Source of the DNA: Tubiluchus corallicola
Lineage: Eukaryota; Priapulida; Priapulimorpha; Priapulimorphida; Tubiluchidae
Assembly (NCBI GenBank): GCA_030141605.1
Contig: JAQGDQ010000219.1
Coordinates: 62,001 to 126,000 of the forward strand
Direction of reading: 5' to 3'
Length of the DNA stretch: 64,000 nt
Shown here piece by piece: positions 31,289 to 49,400 of the stretch; within the stretch, counting starts at the first letter, position 1; each line of letters begins with the position of its first letter. Made by a program: the position numbers and the translations under genes. The notes below the pieces were generated by a model. That model was not told the DNA's origin and ran no database searches. It saw only the letters and a program-made list of their open reading frames with translations.

Positions 31289-31433
31289 ATGGCTTCAGCT
31301 AAAGTTAGTCAGGAGCTTAACCATCGACTGCTCAATTCAGATAAACGATTGTCGCCATCGCCAGAACCAGAAAATGGACTGACGAGTTCCGTAGCTGCAA
31401 AACTGTGTCGATATCAAACCCTTGTGACTATTG
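31289..31433 (+). CDS. PRKX: Kinase alternative first exon A
   Basis: This exon encodes 48 residues plus the first base of a Gly codon, starting at ATG 31289 ([15 protein letters not shown]...). Its last residues, [10 protein letters not shown], line up with the beta-1 strand entering the glycine loop (SLQDFDTLATVG in human PRKX). The donor is G|gtaagc, phase 1, and joins G|GTACTGGTACTTTT at 46485 to give [10 protein letters not shown]. The N-tail has an SPSPEP stretch at residues 22-27. A tgactag acceptor-like site lies just before the ATG, so a 5' untranslated exon may precede it. Confidence 0.8.
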
Positions 31434-34400
31434 GTAAGCACTGAGATTTAGTTCTTTTCTCATTTTTTTGGATTTGATGTGAATAGACATGCATAATTTA
31501 TAATATTACATTTTGTGTGCATTTGCAAACAGAATTGCATGTCAAACTACTGAACTGAAAGCTCGCTAATTTAAGAAAAGCACTAAAAAGCATTACTTTT
31601 GCACAACTTATGAATTACAGGTACGGTTAATTAGTGACAGTATTGATGGAAATTTGACCATCATTAACACCTGAATAGATTCATTATTGAATCTTAAGCA
31701 TAAGCAGAATATCGTTGAAAATGTACAGCTACATGCAGCTTAAGATTACTCAATCCAATGAAACTAAATAACTCACTTTTACTATTAAATAGCTGTTTGT
31801 TCTGTACCCCATGTTTTATGGCATTACTCAACCTTTGGGGCAAAGCTTTGAATGATTATAATAATATGAAGCCAAGGTTACAAAGACTGCTAGTGGAAAA
31901 ATTGGCATAAATTTACAGCACCTAAAGCTTTTTCTTCCTTTTGTCAGAGCCTTACTGAATAAATAACTAATCGCATACTAGTGTGATTGAACTTTGTAAG
32001 AGATTTTCTAGGTGTTTATTATGCCATAGGCATGACTGCATGCTTGTCTGGGTATGTGAGTAATTTTATTTGAAGTAAAGGTGTGTAACTTATAAAAATA
32101 AAAGTTCTGCAAAACTTTGGTGTCATTATAAAAAAGTTACAGCTAAAAACTTGTATGAATTTAATAATAATTTTAGTGAACATTAACACGAGCACTATAA
32201 ACATTAATAACAACGGCATACAATGCATAATGAGTCCAATCTATTGAGAAAAAAGTGGAAGTATTATACGAGCGACCACTTGAAGGCTTAAAGGGAACTG
32301 TGGGGAAAATGTTAATTTGGTTAGTTATTGTCATGCTACAAAGGTGAACTAAAACTTATTGCTATGGCAGAAGCATGGTCTCCATTTAGCTGGAAGTGGC
32401 CACCATGACTGCCATCTGTTATTGGAATAAGAACATTCGCGAAACGAGCTTGCGGAAGCGGTAGCAAATTAGCCCAACAGATGGGCCTGAATCACACTTT
32501 TTTCGCATTTAATTTCGAAATGTCTGGCAGTCTGAATAACTAATTTTTTACAATTTAGAATCGTCAACTAGTCATCTTAATTCTGCTCCATAATCTGAGT
32601 ATGGCGAGTTGAATGTTTGTGAAACCTACACAGTTCTAAATAAAGGTTTATGTGCAAGTAAACGTAGAATCTGAGATAAGGCTTCACTACACAGTAAAAA
32701 GTCATTTTATGGATAGACGATCTAGTGCATGACGTCAACAGGATTGGAGATAAAACCTGTCCTGAGCAATCAAATTGAAAGTTAATCTCAGTTATGAGTT
32801 CATCCGACAGTGTTGTTTATATGGAAAAATTTTAGAGGCCGCCGTTCTTATTAGGCAAACGTTACTTCTTTTTGGCTATTGTGGCAACTTTTGCTAATAT
32901 TCTTGCGAGCTCTTACTAGGAAAAAATTACGCGGACTAGTAGATCTGTTGGCAAAATTACATCATCGTTCTCTGTAAATATTCATCCACACTTCACATTT
33001 GGGAAAGATTGACAAAAAAACCGAAACTGTTGCCTCTCAGAAAACAGGGCATGACTAACAAACAAGGGCGACTATGATATGTTTACTAGTATTACAGTCT
33101 TGAATATGCACTCCTCCAACATACTTGTTTATTGTGCAGTTCATCTTTCAGAAATTTTCGCGAAACTGACTGGCAATGAGTTTCCGAATTCTGCCACTGT
33201 TTTGTGGTTTTTCCATTGTACGCGGGTTTGTGTGCAGAAAACGCTTGCTGACTATAAATAAGTCTGGCTTCATGAAGCAAACATTCAGTGCCCGCACCGC
33301 GTCTTTGTGTGTTATATATAAACGCAAGCTGCAGCGAGGCAGGCTAAATATAGAATAAACCTTTGACTGCCAGGTAAACGGAAGTCGGGAAACTGCCACG
33401 TGAGCAGCAGACATGCGTGCAAATTTGCCCAGAACAAACTTAATTCTTGTACAAATACTTACTACCGAGAATTGATCTTGAGTCTGTATTTAAGGTCTTT
33501 TTTAAGCGCAAAGACTATCTTTGTTGAGAAATGGTTGAAAGCAAACCAATAAAATATTTCTTTTCGGCTTCCCGGCAATCATTCCTGATAACTAGGCTTA
33601 CATGTGCCAGGCGTTGCGTGGTACGTTTATTGGACGAACAGTTGATTCAGTTGACAAACGGGGTGCGGCCTTCACTTCCTAGTTATTCCCTCTTGCAACT
33701 TGACTGCGCCAAGATATCTTCAATATTTCGTTGCGCCATTAATAATATTTCTTTTGGTTGCAATTAAGATACGTGCATCAGTCACACATTTTTCTGTGTG
33801 TTTCTAAATGATTGAAGGAAAGAATAGGCAAAAGAAATTTTTTTAAAGGAAAAGCCAATTCTGGGACATTAGAGGCTTATTTCAATGTTCGCGAATATTG
33901 CTATTTTGAAAACCCATTCTTCTACCAATGACGTCGTTCGCCAAGTGAAGAAAAGCACTACACTGTCAATTTCCGTAAAAACTATTGTAAAGAAAGGGCG
34001 GAATTTGTTGGATATTTGATACTTTAAAGGGAGAGCGCGCCGAAGGTCCGTGGTTCTTAAATTACGCTTTCTTTATTAACCAAAGCCGAAAAAGCGTGAG
34101 TAAAATGAGAAAAATACCGTACTTACTTATATATTTTACTATGTTTACAAACAAATGTTTGCATTAATAACAGTGCAACAAATAAACAATATTAATTAAC
34201 ATGAGTATAAGCATTGATCAAAACTAATCTATCAGTAAACCGTTTAACGGGGGTAATGCACTACACATTACCAACGATTTAGTTTGGCAGAAGGCTTTTA
34301 TAACATACAATATTCGTAATATCTGAAAACAGGTTCAGGTACAAGTTTGAGATCACTTATGCCATGCAAGGTCAAAACTACCTATGAATGCGGCTTCAAC

Positions 34401-46400: not shown

Positions 46401-49400
46401 TGTTATTTATGTTTTACTGTTTTGTTGTGCACACCAGGGTATTGTTATGAGTACATCATTTATATAATTTTACTTTTCTTGCAGGTACTGGTACTTTTGG
46501 GAGGGTGGTCCTATGTCGTGATAGAGAAACTAAACTATACAATGCTCTCAAGATAATGGCTGTGGAAGACGTTGTCCGTTTGAAGCAAGTTCAGCATGTG
46601 AAGAATGAGAAAAGTATTCTAGAATCCGTCAAACATCCGTTTATTGTAAATTTGTAAGTGCTGTTTGTTGTCGGAAGTATAAGCTAAGAATTAACGGGAT
46701 TAAATTATCGATTGACGATTTAAGTCAGTCGTAGCTCTGTGAGCTGTGTGAATTTTCTAGGAAATTGTTAACAAGAACTTTTTAATATTATTTGTTTACT
46801 GGCATGTTTAATTGTTTTGTTAAGAGTGCTGTTCACGTTACAAATTCGCAAAGTGCATTGATAAAATCCATACGTGTACTTTATTCGTAATTCACTTAAT
46901 TATTCAACAAGCTGTCCATCAGTAATTAAGCTGCAGAATTAATGCTTGAACACACCGTACAAATGCCTTTCATTTTGCCTCAGATTGCACCGATGTAAAG
47001 TCTAATTATTGCTAATTATAGCAGCCATAGAAAAGCTACCTCTTGAGTACACTAAATTTAGCCGTTTCACAGGCCAATGGTGCGACTTATATTGATGTCA
47101 GACAGTCATAACAATAATGAAAACGTCTGCAACAACATTCTCTGTTCTCAAAATAGTAAAAACGTCGGACATCAGTTATACTTACAAGTATTCCCACATT
47201 GATTAATGAATTTTGATGGACCTTTGATGGAGGTAATGGCTGAACCATTTGCATCCTTGATACTACAGGCAATCTTGCTAATTTAGTGTGCCAACTAATA
47301 ATCAGTAGGGGACTATATTTCTTGATGGAGACCATCAGTGGCAGCCTATTCTGTTCACAATTACTGGAGTACACTGATATACTTTTAGTGACGTTTCGTG
47401 ACCCTTGCTGCTGTCATCAACAGCTGCTCCCACTAATTAAATGAGCTGCCTTTTAGCAGTAATTAGGAATATTAACATGACAAACTTCAGCTTTACAGTA
47501 CCTGCAAGTACAATAGTGATGCAAGCATCTAAATTTATTGCATTGTATAGTGCTATAATTTGAATAATACTCGTGAATCTGATGAAACACCAGCTATGAT
47601 GCAGTTAATGAAACTTTGAAGTCAGTGTGTGTGGGGGTGTGTGTATCGGTTGGGCCAATTGATCAACGGGTAGGGCAACTTGCCATGTAAGCAGAGATGT
47701 TCTGGGTTCAAATCCTGGTCGCCCCACAATTTGTCAGGGCATCCTTCTCCTAAGCTAATTGTTGTAAGCATGATGTCTTTCTTAATGTAATTCGGAACTG
47801 GATACCCTACAGAAAGGCTTAATAGCCAACGCCCACTGTTGAGAACATTCGAAATGTACTGTTATCACTAGTTTAGGATAGGTGCCTCTAACTGCAGATA
47901 GGCGGCTCTGACTGATTGTGTGCTACTAGAGTGACAGTTTTGACAAGCTGCACTGTTTGGCTAATAGCTGACCTGGTAGAGCAACCTGCCATGTAAGCAG
48001 TGATATGTGGATTTAAATCCTGGTTGGCCCACAATATTTCAGAGCCTCTTTCTTCATTTAATTAGCCATTAGGCTAATTGTTGTAAGCGTGATGTCTTTC
48101 CTAATGTGCATGCCTGTGCTAATGTCATATATGTGGTGCTGATTGTTTTTCGTGTGGTGAGATCATACCTACTTGGCTTTGTTGGGCCAATAGCTTAAGT
48201 GATAGACCGTGCGACCTGTGATTGCATGGTTGTAAGTTTGAATCATGGCTAGTCCACAGTTTTACAGTACTTTCCTTTATCTTCAATTAGCATTATCCAT
48301 TAGATCATTATTTTGGAGAGTTATGTTTCTCTTAAATAAAGTGGCGTTTATGTAGCATGCGGATGCGGATGCGTTTTGGGGGTGTCGAATAGATAAAATC
48401 GGTTTATATCGTTTGCAGTGCAATCATTTATGCAGATTTGCATATGCATTATTCTTTTTCTGTAGCTATTTCCTGTTGATTGTCCACTGGCTGCACCATA
48501 GGCTGTTCCGCAGTTGGAAAACGCATCCGCCGCATGCTACATAAACGCCACTTAAATGTGCGCTGCGTACTTGCGTAGGCCTACGCATGTGTAAACCAGG
48601 CACAGGGTGGTATCTTGTTAAGTAAGGCAAGTAGAATTAATTAAGTTTCATTGTGATCCATGTCGACTCTTTTGGTAAATGATCTGAACCTCATCAGTAG
48701 AGGCAAAGACATGTCACGCGCACCAGTTTATGCGTTTTTTCTCTGATGATTGGTTATCTCTGCCATCCTGGGACAACTGGGTTGTATTTTATAAACACCT
48801 CACCAAAATGTTTATCCTCTGTTGCATCATGTCTGCCTGTTAGATTTAAACGAGCTTCTCAGTGCCAACCTAGCAGTTGCTGGCACCATTAGTTCACTAC
48901 ATCTATTACATCTATGCCATGTGTGTGTCCTGGATGGACTATCTTGGAGTAATTACATTTATATTATTGAGCAGCCTCAATTCATCATGAGCCATGTGGA
49001 AGCCGTATACTTTGTAAGAGAGGTTGAACGAACTGTTACCGCATTTACGACAATTTTACATCAGTTTTTAACTTCTGTATACGTACACGTTTGTGCGTGT
49101 GTGCTTTTTAAACTCCATTTAAACTCTCCACTGCATACCCTTGGATTAAGCATTAGTATTATTTGTTAACATTAGTAATTAGCTTTCTATAGCATTTAAG
49201 AGTTTACTGCTATCTGAAACATAGCAGCTTTTTGAAAAACTTATCAGGTAACCACTTTGATTTTATAGCAAGGTACTCTTTTTTATTTAGAATGTGGACG
49301 TCTCACGACGATACTTTCCTTTACATGTTATTTGAATACATCTGTGGTGGAGAATTGTTCACATATCTTCGGAGTTCTGGCCGATTCTCAAGCAGTACTG

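What the first reader, a model, noticed from the sequence alone, without database searches (positions are those of the whole stretch)
31289..46653. Kinase with two interchangeable first exons meeting inside the glycine loop
Exons at 31289-31433 and 44072-44405 both end in a beta-1-like sequence (YQTLVTIG and FSTFKTLG) with a phase-1 Gly split, and both splice in frame to 46485. One supplies a short tail and the other an acidic Ser-rich tail of about 100 residues. The swap would change regulatory tail and first beta strand together under separate promoters, comparable to alternative first exons of PKA catalytic genes.
Basis: partly seen in the sequence, partly recalled or inferred. Interest (0 to 1): 0.7.

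Follow-up and report, generated by a model that had tools for sequence, protein, structure and literature searches.

The report
PRKX-type kinase with alternative first exons
An apparently animal PRKX-type kinase gene seems to have two alternative starting exons that would change its tail and the first strand of its ATP-binding lobe; alternative starts are common in this kinase family, so it is a modest variation whose use in cells is untested.

Summary
The coordinates and frames in the finding are right. The window carries an intact PRKX/Pka-C3-type kinase gene with seven shared exons (46485-59506, + strand) and two candidate upstream coding exons, A (31289-31433) and B (44072-44405). Both end in a beta-1-like strand, a phase-1 glycine and a GT donor, and join exon 2 in frame (351 and 414 aa). 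Exon B is well supported: its beta-1 score is the best of 622 sites and none in 60 simulations reached it. Exon A is weaker: by motif alone it is at chance level; open frame, donor and start context together lower the expectation to 0.013-0.037 per 126 kb. No transcript data and no related animal genome were available, so splicing, promoters and function are inferred. Alternative first exons are documented in PKA catalytic genes, including predicted ones in Drosophila Pka-C3. In C-alpha-1 the exons join at codon 15; here they join at the first glycine of the ATP loop. I file it as a new variant of a known kind.

The parts
31289..31433 (+). Exon A: alternative first coding exon, 48 codons plus first base of the split Gly; short tail and beta-1 CRYQTLVTI
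   Evidence: Reading frame and GTAAGC donor; in-frame TAA at 31283; codon usage reached by 19 of 546 background stretches
44072..44405 (+). Exon B: alternative first coding exon, 111 codons plus first base of the split Gly; acidic Ser/Thr-rich tail and beta-1 LDFSTFKTL
   Evidence: Reading frame and GTAGGG donor; in-frame TAA at 44063; top beta-1 score of 622
46485..46653 (+). Shared exon 2: rest of the glycine loop (GTGTFGRV) to the stretch before the hinge
   Evidence: Pfam Pkinase E 1.3e-08 for 46487-46654; splice sites
49291..49554 (+). Shared exon 3: catalytic loop YRDMKPEN and DFGFAKK
   Evidence: Pfam Pkinase E 7.3e-27 for 49292-49552; splice sites
50803..50922 (+). Shared exon 4: activation segment [15 protein letters not shown]
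51556..51651 (+). Shared exon 5
54060..54117 (+). Shared exon 6
58248..58325 (+). Shared exon 7
59381..59506 (+). Shared exon 8: C-tail ending FNDF and stop codon

Best explanation
The locus is a PRKX/Pka-C3-type kinase gene with two alternative first coding exons, each spliced directly to exon 2 through the same phase-1 junction inside the first glycine codon of the ATP-binding loop. Exon A gives a short tail with an SPSP segment; exon B gives a long acidic, Ser/Thr-rich and probably disordered tail. The most likely purpose is to put the same kinase under two expression programmes and to give it two tails for localisation or regulation; the B tail has five matches to the CK2-type pattern [ST]xx[DE] (pattern recalled). 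Shown: gene structure, frames, splice-site sequences, one match each in the assembly. Inferred: that both exons are transcribed, have separate promoters and differ in function. The beta-1 change (YQTLVTIG versus FSTFKTLG) is conservative and probably leaves catalysis intact.
For: Coordinates and in-frame joins. A joined to exon 2 aligns without a gap from A residue 36 through beta-1 to PKA chains of the PDB, best E 1.8e-14, though exon 2 carries much of that score. B's beta-1 is the top of 622; B and A are the two best + strand sites over 126 kb; codon usage. Each ATG has A at -3 and G at +4 and an in-frame TAA shortly upstream with no ATG between. A and B cannot be fused in B's frame through any AG before B's ATG: the only AG after the in-frame TAA at 44063 is at 44070, and that join shifts the frame and stops. 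Exon 2, A and B have one match each in the assembly. Recalled PRKX aligned to the whole window found only this gene's exons below E 1.
Against: No RNA evidence. Exon A's beta-1 score alone is at chance level, and three minus-strand sites of the window score higher; two minus-strand sites of the 126 kb match or exceed its combined score. A's tail similarity to the recalled human PRKX tail is not significant (57 of 1000 shuffles equal or better). The codon measure is weak: shared exon 4, surely coding, scores -0.4. A lies 15,051 bases from exon 2, against 633-4,130 for the six shared introns. No promoter was demonstrated. Acceptors inside exon B were not tested for an A-B fusion.
Confidence: 0.74

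Rival explanations
1. Only exon B is a real first exon; exon A is a chance open frame with a good donor site.
For: A's beta-1 score is expected 4.65 times per 64 kb; two minus-strand sites score as high or higher in the combined scan; the CpG content upstream of A is ordinary.
Against: Expectation with an ATG-open frame of at least 40 codons and donor score is 0.037 per 126 kb, 0.013 with start context; codon usage reached by only 19 of 546 background stretches.
Confidence: 0.15
2. Exon A is real but belongs to another transcript, spliced to an unrecognised exon and not to this kinase.
For: It is 15 kb away, and its donor fits any acceptor of the same phase.
Against: It ends in a beta-1-like strand in the register and phase that exon 2 needs. 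Recalled PRKX aligned to the window found no other kinase exon (next best E 1.3), nor did a motif scan, which covered the minus strand and + strand frames starting past 31000. The genome scan lists no kinase match between A and exon 2, but it scored only 132 of 788 candidates and did not list exon 2 itself.
Confidence: 0.07
3. There are further untranslated first exons upstream, and A or B is a coding exon chosen by splicing, perhaps from one promoter. This does not exclude the two protein isoforms of the best explanation; it changes how the choice is made.
For: AG with 12 T in the 20 bases before it, 33 bases before A's ATG; AG one base before B's ATG.
Against: Pyrimidine counts at these two sites (12 and 11 of 20) are below those of the seven shared acceptors (13-16 of 20).
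Confidence: 0.3

Closest known systems
Drosophila Pka-C3 (PMC5802784, passages; PMC1769443, passages)
   Same: PRKX orthologue; two predicted transcripts, RA and RB, with different first exons; a very long N-terminal domain (188 aa) is reported for the fly protein, 19 aa for the honeybee one.
   Different: The RB first exon is said to encode 13 aa that contribute to no known functional domain, so that swap is in the tail. The fly junctions themselves were not examined here.
Vertebrate PRKACA (C-alpha-1/2) and PRKACB alternative 5-prime exons (PMC3625193 and PMC5526564, passages)
   Same: Alternative 5-prime exons give short tails or long ones predicted to be disordered, on a common core; the junction is phase 1.
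   Different: Junction at Val15 of C-alpha-1 (Val7 of C-alpha-2), upstream of beta-1; a different PKA subfamily.
C. elegans kin-1 with six 5-prime exons (PMC9692727, passages)
   Same: An invertebrate PKA catalytic gene with several 5-prime exons and at least 12 isoforms; depletion of N'3 isoforms is reported to cause paralysis and egg-laying defects.
   Different: PKA-C1 type, not PRKX type; the swap point was not examined here.

Membership tests
PRKX/Pka-C3 kinases | Protein kinase domain | tested here: met
   Pfam Pkinase for exon 2 and exon 3
PRKX/Pka-C3 kinases | Closer to PRKX than to PKA C-alpha | tested here: met
   Isoform B: 67.2% over 311 aa versus 54.5% over 303 aa, both references recalled; no tree was built
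PRKX/Pka-C3 kinases | Catalytic motifs GxGxxG, YRDx[17 protein letters not shown] and C-terminal FxxF (motifs recalled) | tested here: met
   Read in the joined protein
PRKX/Pka-C3 kinases | Inhibition by the type I regulatory subunit | not testable with these tools
   Needs biochemistry
PKA-type alternative first exons | Two 5-prime coding exons joining one shared exon in frame | tested here: met
   at the level of sequence only
PKA-type alternative first exons | Both junctions transcribed | not testable with these tools
   No RNA data available
PRKACA-like swap confined to the tail | Swap ends before the kinase core | tested here: not met
   The junction lies in the first Gly of the glycine loop, so beta-1 is swapped too

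The most novel reading that the evidence does not exclude
The choice of first exon exchanges not only the tail but part of the ATP-binding lobe: beta-1 and the residue just before the first loop glycine (Ile in A, Leu in B, equivalent to PKA Leu49, recalled as an adenine-pocket residue). The two isoforms would then differ in nucleotide affinity or inhibitor sensitivity as well as in localisation, and this junction may be an old feature of PRKX-type genes.
Probability: 0.2. Interest if true: 0.5.

Novelty: new variant of a known kind. Interest (0 to 1): 0.33.

Why it matters
If both junctions are used, the gene offers a natural test of how much of a PKA-family kinase can be swapped by first exons, including a strand of the catalytic core. 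It would also give an invertebrate-type PRKX kinase, a subfamily whose functions are little known, two regulatory tails. Otherwise it adds one more case to a well-known device.

Tried and rejected
Third first exon: in the scan of contig bases 1-126000 on the + strand the next site after B and A (window 12906, combined score 7.9, 33 codons) has a poor beta-1 (KNTETLEVTG) and was not pursued. Further copies of A, B or exon 2: no second match in the assembly; gaps and withheld stretches mean this does not prove absence. Fusion of A to B: see Best explanation; acceptors inside exon B were not tested.

Related loci: genome contigs gave 26 loci with bacterial titles and 25-41% identity, no animal sequence among the titles; viral contigs gave none. 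So exon conservation could not be tested. A COX1 search meant to help place the organism found no match; the species stays unknown. A bacterial-type promoter scan upstream of A says nothing about an animal gene. Literature searches listed no title or abstract start about a PRKX first-exon swap at the glycine loop; two searches listed only 10 of 26 and 10 of 164 papers. Passages were read of seven papers; no paper was read whole. PMC12608923 covers invertebrate PKA-C tails and names PRKX once; PMC6143667 added nothing on PRKX exons. Structure prediction was not run, because the joined isoforms are not contiguous in the window.

Full report
What was checked. The finding names two exons and a shared acceptor. 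All three are present at the stated places and frames. Exon A (31289-31433) and exon B (44072-44405) each begin with ATG, stay open, and end one base into a glycine codon before a GT donor; exon 2 begins with GT after TTGCAG at 46485 and completes that codon. Exon 2 ends at 46653 before GTAAGT.

The gene. Aligning recalled human PRKX to the window located the other exons. With splice sites fixed by eye the shared exons are 46485-46653, 49291-49554, 50803-50922, 51556-51651, 54060-54117, 58248-58325 and 59381-59506, the last with the stop codon. The joined proteins have 351 (A) and 414 (B) residues. Isoform B matches recalled PRKX at 67.2% over 311 residues and recalled PKA C-alpha at 54.5% over 303; no tree was built. 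The catalytic motifs and the terminal FxxF are intact. Exon 2, A and B have one match each in the 343.5 Mb assembly.

Is exon B real? Its beta-1 strand [10 protein letters not shown] scores 14.3 against a profile of 16 recalled AGC kinase segments, the best of 622 GGT sites on the window's + strand; the next scores 9.0. None in 60 order-3 Markov sequences reached it. With a donor score added and an ATG frame of at least 14 codons, 0.013 sites per 126 kb reached it in 80 order-4 simulations, none with a frame of at least 40 codons. Codon usage, trained on 2484 codons from five long frames cut out by the exon 3 search, gave 24.9 bits, more than all 21 background open stretches of that length.

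Is exon A real? By its strand alone it is not remarkable: [10 protein letters not shown] scores 4.9, ranks 11th of 622 on the + strand, is exceeded by three of 546 minus-strand sites, and 4.65 such sites are expected per 64 kb. Requiring an ATG-open frame of at least 40 codons leaves 0.15. With the donor score the simulated expectation is 0.338 per 126 kb (frame of at least 14 codons), 0.037 with at least 40 codons and 0.013 with start context too. In real DNA, B and A are the two top sites on the + strand of contig bases 1-126000, but the minus strand has one site at 13.8 (94 codons) and one at 8.6 (58 codons), equal to A at the printed precision; I did not examine whether these lie in genes. 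Codon usage gives 5.2 bits, reached by 19 of 546 background stretches; the background DNA was taken as non-coding without proof, and shared exon 4 scores only -0.4 on the same measure. A joined to exon 2 aligns to PKA chains from A residue 36 through beta-1 without a gap. Similarity of A's tail to the recalled human PRKX tail is suggestive but not significant: 57 of 1000 shuffles, against 739 of 1000 for B. My judgement is about 0.8 for exon A and 0.96 for exon B.

How it probably works. Each ATG has an in-frame TAA upstream, with one (A) or two (B) codons between and no other ATG, so each exon looks like a place where translation starts. Fusion of A to B in B's frame is not possible through an AG before B's ATG: any acceptor upstream of 44063 meets that TAA, and the only later AG (44070) shifts the frame and meets a stop. 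The two would thus be alternatives. The 1 kb upstream of B has CpG observed/expected 1.03, reached by 7.6% of 1250 windows, and A 0.59, reached by 46.6%; but most of 33-46 kb is raised (0.61-1.14), so this does not single out a promoter at B. A has an AG with 12 T in the preceding 20 bases, 33 bases before its ATG, so it may be preceded by an untranslated exon. The A tail has 41 residues and net charge +2; the B tail has 102 residues, 18 Ser, 14 Thr, 22 acidic residues, net charge -13 and five [ST]xx[DE] matches. Regulation by the tails is inference.

Comparison with what is known. Alternative 5-prime exons are an established device of PKA catalytic genes: PRKACA and PRKACB (passages of PMC3625193 and PMC5526564), kin-1 with six 5-prime exons (passages of PMC9692727) and, in the PRKX orthologue itself, Drosophila Pka-C3 with two predicted transcripts using different first exons (passages of PMC5802784) and a 188-residue N-terminal domain (passages of PMC1769443). 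In C-alpha-1 the junction is at Val15, phase 1. Here the junction is at the first loop glycine, so the swap takes in beta-1. Whether other PRKX genes have this junction could not be tested: the collections at hand gave only bacterial kinases or nothing. The finding is a plausible new variant of a known kind, of modest interest until transcripts are seen.

Noticed in passing
window 34602-35348, - strand: Overlapping broken frames (for example [13 protein letters not shown] and [25 protein letters not shown]) resemble, from recall, the 3-prime end of a decayed non-LTR retrotransposon, inside the A-to-exon-2 interval. The two pieces given to Pfam (34602-34907 and 35061-35348) had no match above a cut-off.
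   Followed up: partly
window 62646-63437, + strand: A 263-aa open frame with a strong ELO (fatty acid elongase) match, Pfam PF01151 E 3e-55, downstream of the kinase gene.
   Followed up: partly
window 11201-12600: Highest CpG observed/expected of the 700-base windows tested (up to 1.72, median 0.53); no gene assigned.
   Followed up: no
window 58593-58850: A diverged CACCA-type short tandem repeat, about 53 copies, in the last intron of the kinase gene.
   Followed up: no
G000 C760:283418-285069, + strand: Another protein kinase gene lies on the same contig, about 162 kb past this gene's stop codon (two Pkinase matches); its type was not determined.
   Followed up: no
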